DNA from: a bacterium
Lineage (GTDB): Bacteria; UBP15; UBA6099; DSWB01
Assembly: GCA_020061125.1 (NCBI GenBank)
Contig: JAGUYV010000396.1
Location: 1 to 9,208 of the forward strand
Reading direction: 5' to 3'
Length of the DNA: 9,208 nucleotides
The notes below the pieces were generated by a model. The model saw only the letters and a list, made by a program, of their open reading frames with translations. It did not search any database and was not told where the DNA came from. Of this stretch, positions 1,499 to 8,729 are shown in pieces; the stretch's first letter is position 1; each line of letters begins with the position of its first letter. The position numbers were made by a program, and so were the translations under genes.

Positions 1499-2230
1499 AT
1501 GAACAGGACAATCCTGCCCGTGATTGTTGCGCTGGCCCTCGCGGCCGCGGCGCTGCCCGCTCGCGCGCAGATGGGGCCGCCCGTGATGCAGTCCGTGCTG
1601 CGCGTGGAAACGCACTCGGATAGCGCCAGCCCGGACGATTACATTTTCAAGATGATCAGCGTGAGCCGCCAGCTCGAAGGTGGCGTCATCGGCAATGTGT
1701 TCTATGTTTACAAACACAACATTGATGAAGCCAACACCGGCGGCCACATCGCGGGCGTGAACATCATCAAGATGTTTTCCGATGAAACCATGTTCATGTT
1801 CGGGTACTCGTACAACAAGATTGACGAGCGCAGCTCGGGCCTGCGCAACACGGACAGGGACCGCTGGGTGCTCGGCCTGCACCACTTCCCCTACAAGGAC
1901 GAGCGCGGCAACCGGATCACTTTAAGCTCCGTGTACAACACGCAGACGGACTGGTCCGAATCCCGCGCCATTGATTTCGGGATCGCTTACAAAGCCATGC
2001 TGGGCGACAAATGGTCCGCGCGCATGGGCTACAAATACACCCATGGCCTCGGCGCCGTGGACACGCACCTTCTGAACCAGTGGAACCTGGATTTCTCCTG
2101 GGACATCAGCAAACGCTGGTCCGTAGACCTTGGTTATCTGTTCGTGGACAAAGTGTTTTCAGTGCCCGCGCCCGGCGCGCAGCCCGAAGACGACCATGTG
2201 GTTCGCACAGGCTTGAAATACACCTACTAA
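1499..2230 (+). CDS. Predicted small outer-membrane beta-barrel protein (copy 1)
   Basis: This 243-aa protein begins with a Sec signal peptide: Lys/Arg-poor start, hydrophobic core at residues 5-18, and likely cleavage after ARA at 23. The mature part consists of alternating polar and hydrophobic strands rich in Tyr, Trp and Phe, such as FMFGYSYNKIDE, WSARMGYKYTH and WSVDLGYLFVD. It ends in an aromatic-rich strand, RTGLKYTY, with a terminal Tyr as expected for barrel assembly. No enzyme motif is visible. I chose ATG 1499 because AGGGAG (1486-1491) sits 7 nt upstream and the signal peptide begins there; the frame is open further back, to an ATG at 1409. It resembles the protein at 5081-5806 in size, in an ETHS/ESHS motif near mature residue 15, and in strand pattern. 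Both are followed by a FecR-domain gene. The specific function is unknown. Confidence 0.8.
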   Translation: MNRTILPVIVALALAAAALPARAQMGPPVMQSVLRVETHSDSASPDDYIFKMISVSRQLEGGVIGNVFYVYKHNIDEANTGGHIAGVNIIKMFSDETMFMFGYSYNKIDERSSGLRNTDRDRWVLGLHHFPYKDERGNRITLSSVYNTQTDWSESRAIDFGIAYKAMLGDKWSARMGYKYTHGLGAVDTHLLNQWNLDFSWDISKRWSVDLGYLFVDKVFSVPAPGAQPEDDHVVRTGLKYTY

Positions 2231-2258
2231 TGACCCGGATTTCGGGGAGGGATATGCC

Positions 2259-3149
2259 ATGAAAAAACCCGTTCTGATTCTGATCCCCATGCTGGCCGCG
2301 GTTCTGGCGCTGTGCGCCGTGGCGCGCGCCGCGGGCGAAGTGGAGGCCTTCTCGGTCAAGGGGTCCGTGGAATTCGCCAAAAAGGGATCGAGTTCCTGGA
2401 TGCCTCTGGCCAAGGGCGTGCTGGTGCCGCAGGGCCACACCGTGCGCACAGGCGCCGATGGCAGCGTGACCCTGCGCTGGCACGACGGCAACGCGGCCAA
2501 ACTCGGTCCTTCCACTCTGTTCACTGTGGACAGTTTGTCCAAATCCGGAAACTCCGAGACTTCCAAACTTGACCTGGCGCAGGGCAGCGCGTATGTAAAG
2601 GCAAAAAAGGTTGCCGGCGGACAGAACACCTTCGAGGTCAAAACCCCGACCGCCATCGCCGGCGTGCGCGGCACCGAATTCCTGTCAGAAATCGGCGATG
2701 CGGGCAAAGCCACCTTTGCGGTCACGGACGGACAGGTCTCCGTGGAGGCGCAGGGCGTCACGGTCATCATTGACACCAATTACATGATTTCCGTGGACCC
2801 GGGCCAGCCGCCCGGAGAGATCTTCAGCATCCCGGACGACCTCAAGACACGCCTCGACGAAGACTCACAGGAAGTCAAACAGGCCGCGGCCGCACCCGCC
2901 CCGGAGAAAAAGGAAGAAGAAAAGAAGGAAGAAAAGAAAGAGGAAAAAAAGGAAGAGAAGAAGGAAGAGAAAAAAGAAGAGCCTAAAGCGGAAAAGCCCG
3001 CAGCGGAAACCAAGCCCGAAGCCACGGACGCCGCTGAAGCCATTGACACCGCAGTCGAGGTCCTCACCGGCGAACTCATCGAGCAGGATGTGCTCAATTT
3101 GATTCTCGACGATGTGGTGACGCCCGTGCTGAACTGCTGCACGCAATAG
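2259..3149 (+). CDS. Exported FecR-domain protein with Lys/Glu-rich tail (copy 1)
   Basis: This 296-aa protein has a signal peptide with likely cleavage after ARA at 24. A FecR domain follows at about residues 27-165, with the family landmarks VKGSVEF, GHTVRTGADGSVTLRW, LGPSTLF and FEVKTPTAIAGVRGTEFL. Residues 216-242 form a run built on KKEE units, probably an extended charged linker. Next comes an acidic, helix-prone segment (about 257-290) and a C-terminal pair of cysteines (NCCTQ). Unlike classical FecR regulators, it has no cytoplasmic anti-sigma domain and no internal membrane anchor, so it should be released into the periplasm or held at the surface. It starts 28 bp after the barrel gene with a strong GGGGAGGG ribosome site. 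FecR domains are thought to bind ligands or partner proteins; pairing with the upstream barrel is my inference. Confidence 0.88.
   Translation: MKKPVLILIPMLAAVLALCAVARAAGEVEAFSVKGSVEFAKKGSSSWMPLAKGVLVPQGHTVRTGADGSVTLRWHDGNAAKLGPSTLFTVDSLSKSGNSETSKLDLAQGSAYVKAKKVAGGQNTFEVKTPTAIAGVRGTEFLSEIGDAGKATFAVTDGQVSVEAQGVTVIIDTNYMISVDPGQPPGEIFSIPDDLKTRLDEDSQEVKQAAAAPAPEKKEEEKKEEKKEEKKEEKKEEKKEEPKAEKPAAETKPEATDAAEAIDTAVEVLTGELIEQDVLNLILDDVVTPVLNCCTQ
2903..2981 (+). repeat. 79-bp homopurine tract encoding KKEE-type repeats
   Basis: Every base from 2903 to 2981 on the plus strand is A or G, inside a region that is otherwise GC-rich and mixed. The tract encodes approximately six KKEE units in the FecR-domain protein. 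Codon use alternates between aaa/aag and gaa/gag, so the repeat is looser in DNA than in protein. Such tracts can slip in length or form triplex DNA. Confidence 0.9.
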
Positions 3150-3201
3150 CGCGGATACAAGACGGGACAAACCTTTGCAGTTAACGAGGGAGCGAACTTC
3201 A

Positions 3202-4920
3202 ATGAAGCGATATTTCGGAACCGGGATCGGGATCGGCGCTCTGGCGCTCATCATAGGCCTTACGCTGGCGGGATGCGGAGGCGGTGGCGGCGGCGCCCTG
3301 CCCCATGTGCCCAATTCACTGGGCCGCACCTGCGTGGCGCCCGGTACCGCGGTGCGCAACTCCACGCGCGCCGCCGCATCGCTCATCTCCCCCTACGCCG
3401 GTTACTGGACCGGCACATTCTCCGCGGGCAGCGCCCTGTCGGGAACCATCACGCTCGCCATCAGCAATGACGGCTCCACCTTCACCGGCTCCGTGTCGGG
3501 AACCAACAGCTCCTGCGGCTCGGTGTCCATCAGTTTCTCCGGAACCGTAAGCAACGGCGTGCTCACCTTCACCTCGTTCTCCGGCTCGGACGGCTGCGGC
3601 GCCATCTCCGGCTCCATGAGCGGCAGCATCTATTCCGCCTCTTCCCTGTACATTTCCATGAGCGGCACGCTTACGCACGCCTCCCAGGGATCGCTTTCGG
3701 CATCCGCATCGGCGTATCCCCGCCAGGGAACCATTCAGTGCATCCAGATAAACACGGACGCCGCCATCTCCCCGCAGACCGCATCAGTCACATATCCGGC
3801 CACACAGTCTTTCTTCATCACCATATACGACGACGGATGCAATCCCATGCCCGCCTGGACTACGGTTTCGTGGAGCGTTGACAGCGCCATCGGGTCCATC
3901 ACGGGCAGCGGCGTGTTCACGCCCGTAAGCTCGTCCAGCGCCGTGCAGGGCTATGTTTACGCAACATTCGAGGGACATACGGACGCTGTTCTCGTAACCG
4001 TGAACGGCGATACCACGGCGCCGACCATCAGCGAAACGGTTCCCTCGGACGGCGCGGCGACCGTGGCCGCGGACGGACCCACCTTTAAGGTCATTTTCAG
4101 CGAATCCATGGACAGCGCCGTGAACCTCAACGACAGCGCAACCCTGTCCGCCTCGGGGTTCGGCATCGCCCTGCAGCGCAGCGACACCGGCGCAAGCATC
4201 ACTGTTGATTCATCCAACGCCCTGTCCTACGGAGTGTTCTCCTGGATGTCCACGACAAACTCCAACGACACCCTGGCGTTCACCCTCAAGAGCAGCGCTG
4301 TGCTTGAAGCCGCAGGCCTGAAAACCCTCAAGGCCGGCCGCACCTACAACATCACATCCTGGACCGCGCCCTCGAATGTCACGGACGCTTCCGGCAACGC
4401 CTTGAGCACAACAGGGGTGAGCACGACCGGCTCGTTCACCGCAAGCGCGGACACCACCGCGCCCCAGGTGTCCTCCCTGTGGCCGTCCAACGGCGCAACC
4501 AATGTGGCTTCTGACCAGCCCCAGTTCAGAGTCTATTTCAATGAATCCATGGATCACACCGTGAATCTCAACAACAGCGCGACACTGTCGGCTTCGGGCT
4601 TCAGCATCACCCTCCAAAAAGCCTCCACGGGCGCATCCCTCACCATAGACGCATCCAACGCCCTGGCCTACGGGTCGTTCATCTGGATGTCCACAACCTA
4701 CGACAACGACACGCTCGCGTATGTGCTGAACAGCAACGCCACTCTGGGTTCCAGCGGGCTGAAAACCCTGGACGCGGGCACGCTGTACAACATCACGGCG
4801 CGCACCGTGCCGGCGAACCTCCGTGACCAGGCCGGAAATGCGCTGAACACGACAACGAACATTCCCACAACGGGTTCGTTCACCACGCAGAGCGGCGGCA
4901 TGCTCGTGGGGCGCTTGTAA
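3202..4920 (+). CDS. Ig-like-domain lipoprotein with two tandem SbsA-type (Big_5) repeats
   Basis: This 572-aa protein begins with a lipoprotein signal, ending in the lipobox LAGC with Cys25 as the lipidated residue. A six-glycine tether follows. Domains in order are: a Ser/Gly/Thr-rich beta region at about 65-165 (starting GYWTGTF, with cysteines at 105 and 132); a Big_2-like Ig domain at about 183-268; and two SbsA-type Ig-like repeats at 270-416 and 417-564. Each repeat opens with DTTAP and contains an F-S/N-ESMD motif. ATG 3202 is preferred over the in-frame ATG at 3175 because GAGGGAG (3186-3192) is 9 nt upstream and the signal peptide starts there. It lies 52 bp after the FecR gene and ends at a terminator, so it is the last gene of the operon. 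It probably acts as a surface or periplasmic structural or adhesive protein. No catalytic motif or sorting tail is seen; the protein stops just after the last repeat. Confidence 0.87.
   Translation: MKRYFGTGIGIGALALIIGLTLAGCGGGGGGALPHVPNSLGRTCVAPGTAVRNSTRAAASLISPYAGYWTGTFSAGSALSGTITLAISNDGSTFTGSVSGTNSSCGSVSISFSGTVSNGVLTFTSFSGSDGCGAISGSMSGSIYSASSLYISMSGTLTHASQGSLSASASAYPRQGTIQCIQINTDAAISPQTASVTYPATQSFFITIYDDGCNPMPAWTTVSWSVDSAIGSITGSGVFTPVSSSSAVQGYVYATFEGHTDAVLVTVNGDTTAPTISETVPSDGAATVAADGPTFKVIFSESMDSAVNLNDSATLSASGFGIALQRSDTGASITVDSSNALSYGVFSWMSTTNSNDTLAFTLKSSAVLEAAGLKTLKAGRTYNITSWTAPSNVTDASGNALSTTGVSTTGSFTASADTTAPQVSSLWPSNGATNVASDQPQFRVYFNESMDHTVNLNNSATLSASGFSITLQKASTGASLTIDASNALAYGSFIWMSTTYDNDTLAYVLNSNATLGSSGLKTLDAGTLYNITARTVPANLRDQAGNALNTTTNIPTTGSFTTQSGGMLVGRL
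4009..4893 (+). repeat. Tandem duplication of an SbsA-type Ig-like unit (441-444 bp)
   Basis: Unit A covers 4009-4449 (147 aa) and unit B covers 4450-4893 (148 aa). They align along their whole length with one extra residue in B, and share segments such as NL-N-SATLSASGF, TGAS-T-D-SNAL-YG-F-WMSTT and GLKTL-AG--YNIT. The DNA has diverged at many third positions, so the duplication is not recent. Confidence 0.92.
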
Positions 4921-4926
4921 GCGGCC

Positions 4927-4972
4927 TTCCGCCCGGCGCCAGCGCCGCCGGGAGAATCGGAGGCGGATTTTT
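4927..4972 (+). terminator. Rho-independent terminator ending the first operon
   Basis: A TCCGCC/GGCGGA outer stem (4928-4933 with 4962-4967) encloses an inner hairpin CCCGGCG/CGCCGGG (4932-4938 with 4946-4952). The two share bases 4932-4933 and may be alternatives. TTTTT follows immediately at 4968-4972. It sits 7 bp after the lipoprotein stop codon and separates the first operon from the second barrel-FecR pair. Confidence 0.75.
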
Positions 4973-4986
4973 GATTGCGGAAACTC

Positions 4987-5015
4987 TTTACAGACCGTTA
5001 TTGTTGCATTAAAGT
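4987..5015 (+). promoter_or_regulatory. Candidate promoter for the second barrel-FecR pair
   Basis: TTTACA (4987-4992) and TAAAGT (5010-5015) are 17 nt apart in an AT-rich stretch after the terminator. They match the sigma-70 consensus at five of six and four of six positions. Transcription would begin near 5022, giving a leader of about 60 nt. The second pair can therefore be expressed independently of the first operon. Confidence 0.5.
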
Positions 5016-5023
5016 GTTTGAAT

Positions 5024-5038
5024 GCCACAATTCGTGGC
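5024..5038 (+). repeat. Inverted repeat GCCAC-AATTC-GTGGC in the leader of barrel copy 2
   Basis: This is a perfect 5-bp inverted repeat with a 5-nt centre, just downstream of the predicted transcription start. In RNA it would form a small hairpin at the very 5' end of the message. In DNA it could serve as an operator. It is short enough to be chance. Confidence 0.4.
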
Positions 5039-5080
5039 TCTTAATACTAATGCTAAAAGGTTATGAAAGGAGACCGCATC

Positions 5081-5806
5081 ATGAGCATCAGACACGCACT
5101 TCTCGCTGTACTGGCCGCGGCCCTGACCGCCTCGGCCGCGAGCGCCGCCGCATTTGACGATGTCAAAATCTTCGCGGCCACGCGCTTCGAGTCCCACAGC
5201 CTGGAAGCCAGAAACCAGGCGGACAACTCGCTGCTCACCACGCTCACCTTTGTGTCCCAGACCGGCCGGCAGGGTTCGGCCCTGGTTTCCATCGGGCACA
5301 AGCAGGATCTCGAGGACAGTGAATCCGACGGCCTGGCCTTGAGCGCCTCGTATGTCCACAACTTTTCCAGAAGCTCCTACGCGCTGGTGGGTTATTCGAA
5401 TTACCACAGCTACCAGAGCGTGGACGACGGCCGGATTGACGACACATCCGACATGATCTACATCGCGCATGGGTGGAAGGTGCTCAAGCGCGACCGCGTG
5501 CAGGGCACGCTGTTCACCACCATGAGCACGGACACCGCATTCGACGACAACCGCATGATCAGCGAAACCGTGCGGTTCACCGGCCCCGTGGGCCGCACCT
5601 ACCGCTGGAACGCAGGCTACCAGTTGGGATATTCGCTGGTGGATGACAGGCGCTCCCTCGGCGCGCTGGAGGCCGGAGTGGCCAAACCCGTGTCGCGCCA
5701 GGGCGTGGTCTCCGTGTCCCACCGCCGCGTTTCGTATGTGAACAATCCGGGCGCAGACCTGGAAGACAATCAGTGGATTGTGGCATACAGCCACAAAATC
5801 CGGTAA
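5081..5806 (+). CDS. Predicted small outer-membrane beta-barrel protein (copy 2)
   Basis: This 241-aa protein begins with a signal peptide (hydrophobic core at residues 6-18, cleavage near ASA-A at 22-23). The rest is short amphipathic strands rich in Tyr, Ser and Val, for example SSYALVGYSNYHSY, WNAGYQLGYSLVDD and GVVSVSHRRVSYV, the pattern of an outer-membrane barrel. Unlike copy 1, the last residue is Arg (WIVAYSHKIR), so the usual terminal aromatic is missing or displaced. ATG 5081 is chosen because AAAGGAG (5066-5072) lies 8 nt upstream; an in-frame ATG at 5063 would leave the signal peptide with an odd extension and no such site. Size, the FESHS motif near the mature N-terminus and the following FecR gene make it a likely paralogue of 1499-2230, though sequence identity is low. 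No specific family or substrate is recognised. Confidence 0.75.
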   Translation: MSIRHALLAVLAAALTASAASAAAFDDVKIFAATRFESHSLEARNQADNSLLTTLTFVSQTGRQGSALVSIGHKQDLEDSESDGLALSASYVHNFSRSSYALVGYSNYHSYQSVDDGRIDDTSDMIYIAHGWKVLKRDRVQGTLFTTMSTDTAFDDNRMISETVRFTGPVGRTYRWNAGYQLGYSLVDDRRSLGALEAGVAKPVSRQGVVSVSHRRVSYVNNPGADLEDNQWIVAYSHKIR

Positions 5807-5823
5807 CCGGGGAGGGACCAGAC

Positions 5824-6624
5824 ATGTTCAGACACAAGACGATTATAACGGCATTGATTATGGCGCTGGCCCTGTCCGCGCCCGCAGCCGCGGAGAACTA
5901 CAAGGCCGTGGCGGGCAACATCAAAGGCACGGTTCAGATGTCAACCGGCGGCGGGTCGTGGAAGGCCGTGAAAAACCACGACAAGCTGCGCATGGGCGAC
6001 AAGGTCAAAACCGGCGCGGACGGTTCCGTAATTCTGTCCTTCGGGCAGGGCAATGTGCTGGCCCTGTCGCCGCTCACCTCCATCACCATCGAGGACATAA
6101 GCAGCCGGGGCAACACAAAATCCAGCGTGATCCGCGTGGAATCCGGCCGCATGCTGGCCACGGCTCGCAAGCTCAAAACCCCGGATTCGGTGTTCGAGGT
6201 GCGCACCCCGCACGGCTCCGCGGGCGTTCGCGGCTCCGAGGTCGCCGTGACCGTGGATCAGGGCGCCTCCCTGTTCCAGATCATCTCCGGCGTGTTCAAT
6301 GTGACCGTGGGCGGCGTCTCCGAGCTGCTCCAGGCCGGGTTCCAGATGGACATCGCCGCCGGGCTTTCCGCGCCTCCGGCGGCAGCCGCCATTGACCCGG
6401 CCGTGCTCGAAGCTCTCAAAAAGGAAGTCCAGGAAAAGACCGAGGCCGGAAAGCAGACCGAGGCCAACAGCGCCGCCGAGGACAACACCATCGAGGCCGC
6501 GAACGATGTGTTCGAAATCCTGGATCGCGCCAACCACGGCTCGTGCCGCACCGTGTGCTCGTATTTCAGCAGCGACGGCTCCTGCATGTACATTTATGAG
6601 ATGTGCGAATACCACAGCTATTGA
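5824..6624 (+). CDS. Exported FecR-domain protein with four-cysteine C-terminal tail (copy 2)
   Basis: This 266-aa protein has a signal peptide with cleavage near APAAA at 23. The FecR domain spans about residues 26-165, with landmarks GNIKGTVQM, MGDKVKTGADGSVIL, ALSPLTSITI and FEVRTPHGSAGVRGSEVAV. A Lys/Glu/Ala-rich, probably helical segment follows at about 190-233. The C-terminal tail holds all four cysteines (241, 245, 254, 261) and ends in Tyr. Like copy 1, it has no anti-sigma domain and no second membrane segment, so it should be free in the periplasm or attached to a partner. The gene starts 17 bp after the barrel gene behind GGGGAGGG (5809-5816) at 7-nt spacing, the same ribosome site and spacing as copy 1. 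Two disulfides in the tail are plausible in the oxidising periplasm. The function of the tail is unknown. Confidence 0.87.
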   Translation: MFRHKTIITALIMALALSAPAAAENYKAVAGNIKGTVQMSTGGGSWKAVKNHDKLRMGDKVKTGADGSVILSFGQGNVLALSPLTSITIEDISSRGNTKSSVIRVESGRMLATARKLKTPDSVFEVRTPHGSAGVRGSEVAVTVDQGASLFQIISGVFNVTVGGVSELLQAGFQMDIAAGLSAPPAAAAIDPAVLEALKKEVQEKTEAGKQTEANSAAEDNTIEAANDVFEILDRANHGSCRTVCSYFSSDGSCMYIYEMCEYHSY

Positions 6625-6899: not shown

Positions 6900-8729
6900 A
6901 TGTGCGGAATCGTGGGATACATCGGCAGCGGTGAAGCCACGGAATACATCTTCGACGGACTCAAGCGGCTCGAGTACCGCGGCTATGATTCGGCGGGCAT
7001 CGCCACAATCACCAACGGCGGCATAGACCGGCGCCGCGGCGAGGGCAAGCTCGTGAACCTCGAAAAGAAACTGCGCGAGCAACCCCTGGCCGGCTCCGTG
7101 GGCATCGGCCACACCCGCTGGGCCACGCACGGGCGCCCCACCGAGTTCAACGCCCACCCCCACACCGACGGCTCCGGCAAAATCTCCGTGGTGCACAACG
7201 GCATCATCGAAAATTACATGCCCCTCAAAGAGGAGCTTATCGAAAAGGGGCACCGCTTCGTGTCCCAGACCGACACCGAGGTGCTCGCCCACCTGATCGA
7301 GGACGAGTTCAAAGACGACCTCGAAGCCGCGGTGCGCGCCGCGCTCAAGCGCGTGGAAGGCGCCTACGCCATCGGCGTGATCTCAACCCATGACCCCGAC
7401 ACCCTCATCGCGGGCCGCAAGTCCAGCCCCCTCATTCTCGGACTGGGAGACAACGAGAATTTCATCGCATCGGATGTGCCCGCCATTCTGCCCCACACCC
7501 GAAAAATCATTTACCTCGACGACGAGGAAATCGCCGTGCTCACCCGTTCCGGCGCGACCGTCAAGGACCTCGGCGGCAACACCGTGGACAAGAAGGTCGA
7601 AACCATCGAGTGGAACCCGGTGCTGGCCGAAAAAGGCGGCTACGACCACTTCATGCTCAAGGAGATCTTCGAGCAGCCCCAGGTCATCCGCAACACCATC
7701 GGCGGCCGCACCGACGAGGAACACGCCAAAATCTACCTCGAAGAAATGGGCCTGTCCGTCGAAGATGTGAAGAAGCTCAAGCACATCTACATCGTGGCGT
7801 GCGGCACCGCATATTACAGCGGCTGCGTGGGCAAATACATGATCGAGCAGCTCGCCCGCGTGCAGGTCGAGGTGGACTTCGCCTCCGAGTTCCGCTACCG
7901 CAACCCCATCGTGGACGAGTCCACGCTCGTGATCGTAATCTCGCAAAGCGGCGAAACCGCGGACACCCTGGCCGCGCTGCGCGAAGCCAAAAAGCGCGGC
8001 GCCAGGGTCATCGGTATCGTGAATGTCAAAGGCAGCAGCATCGCCCGCGAGGTGGACGGCGTGCTGTACATCCACGCCGGGCCGGAAATCGGCGTGGCCA
8101 GCACCAAGGCGTACATGGCCATGCTCATCGCCCTCATTCTGATCGCCATCCAGTTCGGCCGCATGCGTGAGCTGGTGGATGTGCCCGAGGCGCGCCGCCT
8201 CATCCGCGAACTCAAGCGCCTGCCGCGCCTCATCGAGCGCACTCTGGCCGATGTCGGCAACATCCAGGAAATCGCCGAAACCTTCTTCGAGGCCCGGGAC
8301 TTCCTGTACCTGGGCCGCGGCGTGAACTTCCCTACCGCGATGGAAGGCGCGCTCAAGCTCAAGGAAATCTCCTACATCCACGCCGAGGCCTACGCAGCGG
8401 GCGAGATGAAACACGGCCCCATCGCGCTCATTGACCGCAACATGCCCGTGCTGTGCATCGCCACCAAGAGCGCCACCTACGACAAAGTCTTGAGCAACAT
8501 CCAGGAAGTCAAGGCGCGCGAGGGCAATGTCATCGCCCTGGTCACAGACGGCGACGAGGAAATCCTCAAGTTCACCCGCGATGTCATCTCCGTGCCAGAG
8601 ACCGAGGAAATATTGTCCCCGATCGTCAATGTCGTGCCCATGCAGCTTCTGGCGTACTACATCGCCCTGCGCCGCGGCTCCGATGTGGACCAGCCCCGCA
8701 ACCTGGCCAAGTCCGTGACCGTGGAATAG
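6900..8729 (+). CDS. glmS: Glutamine--fructose-6-phosphate aminotransferase (isomerizing)
   Basis: This 609-aa protein catalyses the first step of UDP-GlcNAc synthesis, making glucosamine-6-phosphate from fructose-6-phosphate and glutamine in the cytoplasm for peptidoglycan and lipopolysaccharide. The N-terminal glutaminase domain starts MCGIVGYIG, so Cys2 becomes the N-terminal nucleophile after Met removal. It shows YRGYDSAG, HTRWATHG (71-78), HNG (99-101) and QTDTE (123-127). Two SIS sugar-isomerase domains follow. The first has CGTAYYSG (301-308), SQSGETADT (348-356) and STKAY (401-405). The second has GRGVNFPTAMEGALKLKE (from 472) and HAEAYAAGEMKHGP (494-507). The C-terminus is the family's NLAKSVTVE. 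Length is normal and all key residues are present. The start is fixed by AAAAAGGAG (6883-6891), 8 nt upstream. It appears to be transcribed alone. No glmS ribozyme core is visible in the leader. Confidence 0.98.
   Translation: MCGIVGYIGSGEATEYIFDGLKRLEYRGYDSAGIATITNGGIDRRRGEGKLVNLEKKLREQPLAGSVGIGHTRWATHGRPTEFNAHPHTDGSGKISVVHNGIIENYMPLKEELIEKGHRFVSQTDTEVLAHLIEDEFKDDLEAAVRAALKRVEGAYAIGVISTHDPDTLIAGRKSSPLILGLGDNENFIASDVPAILPHTRKIIYLDDEEIAVLTRSGATVKDLGGNTVDKKVETIEWNPVLAEKGGYDHFMLKEIFEQPQVIRNTIGGRTDEEHAKIYLEEMGLSVEDVKKLKHIYIVACGTAYYSGCVGKYMIEQLARVQVEVDFASEFRYRNPIVDESTLVIVISQSGETADTLAALREAKKRGARVIGIVNVKGSSIAREVDGVLYIHAGPEIGVASTKAYMAMLIALILIAIQFGRMRELVDVPEARRLIRELKRLPRLIERTLADVGNIQEIAETFFEARDFLYLGRGVNFPTAMEGALKLKEISYIHAEAYAAGEMKHGPIALIDRNMPVLCIATKSATYDKVLSNIQEVKAREGNVIALVTDGDEEILKFTRDVISVPETEEILSPIVNVVPMQLLAYYIALRRGSDVDQPRNLAKSVTVE

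What the first reader, a model, noticed from the sequence alone, without database searches (positions are those of the whole stretch)
1499..6624. Duplicated two-gene cassette: small outer-membrane barrel followed by an exported FecR-domain protein
The sequence shows two copies of the same order: a barrel-like protein of about 242 aa with a signal peptide, then within 17-28 bp a secreted FecR-domain protein of 266-296 aa. FecR domains are known mainly as the periplasmic part of sigma regulators paired with TonB-dependent receptors. Here they lack any cytoplasmic anti-sigma part, and no TonB receptor is present. I infer that each FecR protein partners its own barrel, for example as a periplasmic plug, ligand sensor or scaffold. 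The divergence between copies suggests two specificities.
Basis: partly seen in the sequence, partly recalled or inferred. Interest (0 to 1): 0.65.

Follow-up and report, generated by a model that had tools for sequence, protein, structure and literature searches.

The report
Barrel–FecR–lipoprotein surface cassette
In a little-sampled lineage of bacteria, genes for a small 12-strand outer-membrane barrel, an exported FecR-fold protein and usually an Ig-like surface-type lipoprotein travel together as a unit, which looks like an uncharacterised way of holding or displaying proteins on the cell surface rather than an iron-sensing gene switch.

Summary
Two barrel→FecR gene pairs are present, with gaps of 28 and 17 bp. 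AlphaFold2 gives barrel 1 as a 12-strand porin-like barrel (best match KdgM, Z 19.3). FecR1 matches the juxta-membrane FecR fold of PupR (Z 16.8), but it lacks both the cytoplasmic anti-sigma part and the receptor-binding STN part. Its N-terminal third also matches the cell-surface anchoring (retention) domain of a giant ice-binding adhesin.

The pair is real and conserved: 8 of 10 barrel-family genes in three genomes of the same order are directly followed by FecR, and the two proteins co-diverge. Two corrections apply. First, the copies are ancient paralogues (barrels about 18% identical), not a recent tandem duplication. It follows FecR even more often (10 of 15) than the barrel precedes it (8 of 15).

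In other phyla, FecR genes again sit beside outer-membrane barrels. In Nitrospinota a Slam-like TPR barrel precedes FecR and a CGGGGGG/Big_5 lipoprotein.

Best reading: a surface-protein display or anchoring module with FecR as periplasmic adaptor. The partnership is inferred from genomics; no physical contact was tested.

The parts
1499..2230 (+). Barrel 1: exported 243-aa protein (signal peptide about residues 1-24), predicted 12-strand outer-membrane beta-barrel
   Evidence: AlphaFold2 pLDDT 83.3, pTM 0.76, 12 strands; KdgM Z 19.3, NanC, NalP, EspP and FapF barrels; no Pfam family over cut-off
2259..3149 (+). FecR1: exported 296-aa protein; signal peptide about 1-25, retention-fold/FecR beta domain 25-212, K/E-rich and disordered tail 213-296
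   Evidence: PF04773 57.1 bits at residues 61-160; AlphaFold2 pLDDT about 97 over 31-210, low in the tail; PupR CJM Z 16.8 and 5ix9 anchoring domain
3202..4920 (+). Lipoprotein 1: 572 aa, lipobox LAGC followed by GGGGGG, two C-terminal Big_5 Ig-like domains; third cassette member
   Evidence: Big_5 62 bits, two stretches; homologues in the same position in C93 and G001 C160, blastp E 1e-48 and 3e-49
5081..5806 (+). Barrel 2: exported 241-aa paralogue of barrel 1
   Evidence: own-genome search E 3.2e-4; pairwise blastp E 0.002, 20% identity; family profile
5824..6624 (+). FecR2: exported 266-aa FecR protein with Cys-rich C-terminal tail, no lipoprotein gene after it
   Evidence: PF04773 44.8 bits; 32% identity to FecR1 over 150 aa, E 3e-22
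4921..5080 (+). Spacer between cassette 1 and cassette 2, with a GC-rich inverted repeat followed by T5 (by eye) and one promoter-like site 4987-5015
   Evidence: sequence read; promoter scan found 2 sites against 1.7 expected, so chance level

Best explanation
This is a surface-protein display or anchoring cassette. The small 12-strand barrel sits in the outer membrane. The FecR protein is exported to the periplasm, where its retention-fold/FecR domain acts as adaptor or anchor at the inner face of the barrel. The Ig-like lipoprotein (Cys-Gly6 linker plus Big_5 domains) is the protein held, or helped across, for display at the cell surface. The disordered FecR tail would reach the lipoprotein. 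Supported by computation: the barrel fold, the FecR fold, the missing anti-sigma and STN parts, gene order, conservation and co-divergence. Inferred: cellular location, physical contact, the display role, and which partner the FecR tail binds.
For: Gene order barrel→FecR→CGGGG lipoprotein recurs in six loci of three genomes: the window, C93, G001 C160 and C62, G005 C162 and C512. Barrel→FecR holds in 8 of 15 small-FecR loci and FecR→lipoprotein in 10 of 15 (my count). The lipoproteins of three cassettes are homologous. Barrel and FecR distances co-vary, r 0.77, p 7e-4. In another operon type of the same order, an unrelated large protein with a barrel-like C-terminus precedes FecR, a FecR/Invasin-type protein and again a CGGGGGG lipoprotein. 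In Nitrospinota (L105) a TPR protein with full-length SlipAM (Slam) similarity precedes FecR and a CGGGGGG lipoprotein with Big_5. In Deltaproteobacteria and Omnitrophota, barrel-type genes are followed by one protein in which FecR is N-terminal, with Ig domains in the deltaproteobacterial cases; this is a Rosetta-stone link between FecR and surface Ig proteins. The N-terminal third of FecR1 matches the cell-surface anchoring domain 5ix9 (Foldseek 62 columns, rmsd 1.5, 27% identity; VIA Z 7.0, 74 of 76 residues), also by sequence profile at E 0.002.
Against: No contact between the proteins was tested. Co-divergence is also expected for linked genes that are simply inherited together. Four FecR→lipoprotein loci have no barrel directly upstream, and cassette 2 has no lipoprotein of its own. 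One barrel (C444) has no FecR beside it. The window barrel shows no sequence link to the TPR barrels of other phyla (hhalign probability 6.6%). A Z of 7 to a 76-residue domain is only moderate.
Confidence: 0.45

Rival explanations
1. The barrel is an ordinary small-solute porin (oligosaccharide or nucleoside type) and FecR a periplasmic accessory that gates it, links it to the cell wall or binds its ligand; the lipoprotein is only an operon neighbour.
For: The best structural matches of barrel 1 include KdgM, NanC and VhGalP, 12-strand oligosaccharide porins. In C1 a FecR gene follows an Alginate_exp porin. Some barrel–FecR pairs lack a lipoprotein (window cassette 2, G001 C121).
Against: FecR keeps the lipoprotein more often than the barrel (10 against 8 of 15 loci), and the same lipoprotein type follows FecR in Nitrospinota behind a Slam-like barrel. 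Autotransporter and FapF export barrels match almost equally well (Z 17-18).
Confidence: 0.25
2. A sensory relay: the outer-membrane barrel and periplasmic FecR pass a surface or envelope state to an inner-membrane sensor encoded elsewhere, such as a CHASE2 kinase or cyclase.
For: Across 42 downstream neighbours of FecR in other phyla, 12 have CHASE2 and 7 a cyclase domain, and several Omnitrophota loci run FecR→barrel-like protein→protein of about 640 aa, a set that includes the CHASE2 matches. A secreted LysM-FecR protein sits beside a CHASE2 kinase in a Burkholderia biofilm-regulating operon (PMC5192318).
Against: No CHASE2 or other sensor gene was seen in the window. The ECF sigma gene next door has its own zinc-finger anti-sigma gene, and its orthologues in five genomes lie on contigs without a FecR hit.
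Confidence: 0.15
3. A FecR-type sigma regulator that has lost parts, still working in TonB-receptor signalling with a receptor elsewhere.
For: PF04773 membership and the same CJM fold as PupR.
Against: No anti-sigma domain, no membrane helix other than the signal peptide, no STN part. PupR needs both CJM and STN to bind its receptor (PMC7186176). The genome has 19 FecR matches, many with other kinds of neighbours.
Confidence: 0.04

Closest known systems
FecR/PupR cell-surface-signalling sigma regulators
   Same: CJM beta-solenoid fold, Z 16.8 over 136 residues; PF04773 domain
   Different: no cytoplasmic anti-sigma domain, no STN subdomain, exported by signal peptide, no TonB receptor or partner sigma gene
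Retention / cell-surface anchoring domain of RTX adhesins (5ix9; NCBIfam retention_LapA)
   Same: fold of residues 25-118 and weak sequence match
   Different: separate small protein with a signal peptide, not the N-terminus of a type I-secreted giant adhesin; scores below the NCBIfam cut-off
Slam / type 11 secretion (SlipAM, DUF560)
   Same: works-like analogy: outer-membrane barrel gene next to a surface lipoprotein gene; in Nitrospinota a Slam-like barrel occupies the same position before FecR and a CGGGGGG Big_5 lipoprotein
   Different: window barrel has 12 strands, no TPR, no SlipAM match; lipoprotein shows Ig domains rather than a C-terminal eight-strand barrel; FecR is not mentioned in the two T11SS surveys held
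KdgM/NanC 12-strand porins
   Same: strand number and overall barrel fold
   Different: no Pfam sequence-family match; gene partners
Secreted FecR proteins without anti-sigma part (COG4254 LysM-FecR; Leptospira Lsa33, Lsa19, LipL45)
   Same: signal peptide plus FecR domain; Lsa33 matches FecR1 at E 3e-15, below its cut-off
   Different: no LysM and no lipobox on FecR itself; coupled to a barrel and an Ig lipoprotein here

Membership tests
FecR/PupR sigma regulator | N-terminal cytoplasmic anti-sigma domain and one transmembrane helix | tested here: not met
   protein starts with a signal peptide; FecR fold begins at about residue 25
FecR/PupR sigma regulator | CJM beta-solenoid (FecR domain) | tested here: met
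   PF04773 57.1 and 44.8 bits; PupR 111-250, Z 16.8
FecR/PupR sigma regulator | C-terminal STN subdomain | tested here: not met
   no STN hit; residues beyond 235 have no predicted structure, pLDDT under 60
FecR/PupR sigma regulator | linked ECF sigma gene without another anti-sigma, and TonB receptor | tested here: not met
   neighbouring ECF gene has its own zf-HC2 anti-sigma gene; orthologues lie on contigs without a FecR hit; no TonB receptor in window
Slam / T11SS | TPR domain plus SlipAM 14-strand barrel | tested here: not met
   12 strands, no TPR or SlipAM hit. For the whole genome the SlipAM search is uninformative: no control rang
Slam / T11SS | cargo with C-terminal eight-strand barrel | tested here: inconclusive
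   lipoprotein 1 ends in Big_5 domains; it was not modelled
RTX adhesin retention module | retention / anchoring fold | tested here: met
   5ix9: 74 of 76 residues, rmsd 2.5, Z 7.0; moderate score
RTX adhesin retention module | NCBIfam retention_LapA cut-off (50 bits) | tested here: not met
   19.6 and 23.9 bits
RTX adhesin retention module | one long protein exported by type I secretion | tested here: not met
   296 and 266 aa with N-terminal signal peptides
KdgM-type 12-strand porin | 12-strand barrel | tested here: met
   (barrel 1 only)
KdgM-type 12-strand porin | sequence family match | tested here: not met
   no hit over cut-off in Pfam or NCBIfam
COG4254 LysM-FecR | LysM domain | tested here: not met
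   no LysM hit

The most novel reading that the evidence does not exclude
An undescribed outer-membrane display system in which a FecR-fold periplasmic protein, related to adhesin retention domains, couples interchangeable outer-membrane barrels (small 12-strand barrels here, Slam-like TPR barrels in other phyla) to Ig-like surface lipoproteins. FecR would then be an ancient envelope-anchoring fold shared with, or borrowed by, signalling proteins.
Probability: 0.3. Interest if true: 0.75.

Novelty: new variant of a known kind. Interest (0 to 1): 0.52.

Why it matters
FecR domains are usually read as parts of iron-signalling regulators. Here up to 19 per genome are found, and those of the cassettes are exported, stripped of the signalling parts, and tied to outer-membrane barrels and Ig-like lipoproteins. 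If the display role is right, many 'FecR family' annotations in Omnitrophota, Nitrospinota and other phyla mark surface-protein systems. It would also connect three subjects treated separately: sigma-regulator periplasmic domains, adhesin retention domains and surface-lipoprotein export.

Tried and rejected
First genome-contig scan with the barrel alignment found no relative; the FecR alignment was used instead.

The idea that the divergent ECF sigma/anti-sigma pair forms a conserved unit with the cassette was rejected: its orthologues in five genomes are on contigs without a FecR hit. Local regulation is not excluded.

The idea that the window barrel is a trimmed Slam barrel was not supported (hhalign 6.6%). 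The SlipAM genome search was uninformative because no control rang.

The idea that the conserved FecR C-terminal motif (GTGGIxGTIx[F/Y]) inserts into the barrel was not supported: similar tails (TGDVEIII, SGNLEIIVH, TGQFELDV) occur in FecR proteins with no barrel directly upstream but mostly with a lipoprotein, and the window copies lack the motif.

A read-through translation of a relative's barrel and FecR as one chain was drafted but not folded, because the tool returns no coordinates and contacts could not be read.

Promoter and terminator scans were at or below chance level. PADLOC: no hits.
Full report
Observation. The window is contig C82 of a 4.1-Mb genome in 513 contigs. On the + strand it holds barrel 1 (1499-2230), FecR1 (2259-3149), a lipoprotein (3202-4920), barrel 2 (5081-5806), FecR2 (5824-6624) and glmS (6900-8729). 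On the - strand an ECF sigma gene and a zinc-finger anti-sigma gene lie before barrel 1.

Barrels. Neither barrel passes a Pfam or NCBIfam cut-off. AlphaFold2 on barrel 1 with five aligned relatives gave pLDDT 83.3 and pTM 0.76, a signal helix and then 12 strands. Against solved structures the closest are KdgM (Z 19.3, rmsd 2.2, 170 of 171 residues), NanC, the NalP and EspP translocator domains and FapF. This is a common 12-strand barrel fold; fold alone does not say porin or exporter. Barrel 2 was not modelled.

FecR proteins. FecR1 with 61 relatives gave pLDDT about 97 over residues 31-210 and a disordered Lys/Glu-rich tail. Residues 57-205 match the PupR periplasmic domain (Z 16.8) and BDI_1681 (Z 16.3); residues 25-118 match 5ix9, a cell-surface anchoring domain listed in the PDB as an antifreeze protein, also seen by sequence profile at E 0.002. 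That 5ix9 is the retention domain of a giant ice-binding adhesin is my own knowledge. In PupR the CJM is residues 110-238 and the STN 250-324, and both are needed to bind the receptor's signalling domain (PMC7186176). FecR1 has only the CJM, and it carries a signal peptide in place of the anti-sigma domain. So it shares a domain with FecR regulators but is not one.

Conservation in the order. The own genome has 19 FecR matches, and six relatives have 4-17 each. The collection holds only these six relatives of the same order before kinship drops to 'same domain'. Barrel-family members occur in the own genome (4), G001 (4) and G005 (2); copies in G002 and G006 are partial, those in G002 cut by contig ends. 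Of these ten, eight are directly followed by FecR, one has FecR two genes on (G001 C54), and C444, a 95% copy of the C93 barrel, has none within the contig.

The small FecR genes of these three genomes that I class with the cassettes number 15, counted by hand: barrel directly before in 8, CGGG-type lipoprotein directly after in 10, both in 6. The lipoproteins of the window, C93 and G001 C160 are homologous. Across eight barrel-FecR pairs the distance matrices correlate at r 0.77, p 7e-4. The two window cassettes are about 18% (barrel) and 26% (FecR) identical and are not nearest relatives, so the duplication is old or the copies arose separately.

Beyond the order. FecR relatives from 74 named loci lie beside proteins with a signal peptide and a barrel-type C-terminus: 17 of 54 upstream neighbours and 12 of 51 downstream, against 17 of 361 other genes (Fisher p 3e-8 and 4e-5). 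This is a rough sequence proxy on mechanically called genes, and it includes a few loci from the same order. Among 42 selected upstream neighbours (mostly the immediately upstream gene; a few lie one gene further), 12 match BBP2_2, 8 SlipAM, 8 DUF2860 and 17 TPR_2. L105 (Nitrospinota) runs TPR-SlipAM barrel→FecR→CGGGGGG lipoprotein with Big_5 (E 2e-27). L106, L122 and L137 (Deltaproteobacteria) have FecR fused to Ig domains behind a barrel-type gene, in L106 and L122 with one small open frame between. Downstream neighbours include CHASE2 (12 of 42) and cyclases (7), pointing to a signalling branch as well; a LysM-FecR protein beside a CHASE2 kinase is known from a Burkholderia biofilm operon (PMC5192318).

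Interpretation. The steady neighbours of exported FecR in this order are an outer-membrane barrel on one side and an Ig-like lipoprotein on the other. A shared role in surface display or anchoring explains this best. A porin with a periplasmic accessory is the main rival. Physical contact, location and direction of transport are inference. The T11SS surveys held do not mention FecR, and I found no description of a barrel-FecR-lipoprotein cassette, but the library lacks most subscription papers.

Noticed in passing
L016, L019, L014 (own genome); L049, L063, L067, L074, L075, L082 (same-order genomes): A second conserved operon type in the order: a protein of about 676 aa (Cu_amine_oxidN1 domain in C145, barrel-like C-terminus) → FecR of about 309 aa → a large FecR/Big_1 or Invasin_D3 protein → CGGGGGG lipoprotein; several members lie at contig ends, so not every locus shows all four genes.
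   Followed up: partly
L053, L056, L066/L087: A third type: a FecR protein of about 600 aa (with Ig or Glucodextran_B domains in L053) followed by a 645-aa protein ending in a barrel-type signal, weak OMP_b-brl match in L087.
   Followed up: partly
L116:5275-12318, L131:3294-10337, L079, L083: Very large exported proteins (1,400 to over 2,300 aa seen here) with an N-terminal FecR domain; in Omnitrophota they directly follow a TPR-barrel gene.
   Followed up: partly
L110, L141, L143, L149, L158 (Omnitrophota): Recurrent order FecR → barrel-like protein of about 340 aa → protein of about 640 aa; CHASE2 and cyclase domains are frequent in the scanned set that includes four of these.
   Followed up: partly
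window 2625-2675 against L014:3155-3205: 51 bp of the FecR core motif are 98% identical at DNA level between FecR1 and the C145 FecR gene, although the proteins are only 28% identical overall; gene conversion or strong codon bias.
   Followed up: no
L028:1060-1766 against L017:4085-4791: A 707-bp stretch covering almost only the barrel gene is 95% identical between contigs C444 and C93 with sharp ends; C444 has no FecR neighbour. Strain variant, recombination or assembly chimera.
   Followed up: partly
window 4095-4376 and 4536-4817: The two Ig-like units of lipoprotein 1 are a 71% identical direct DNA repeat.
   Followed up: no
L036 and L040 (G002 C152 and C157): Two barrel-family copies in G002 are cut at the same base at contig ends, as expected from near-identical repeats that broke the assembly.
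   Followed up: no
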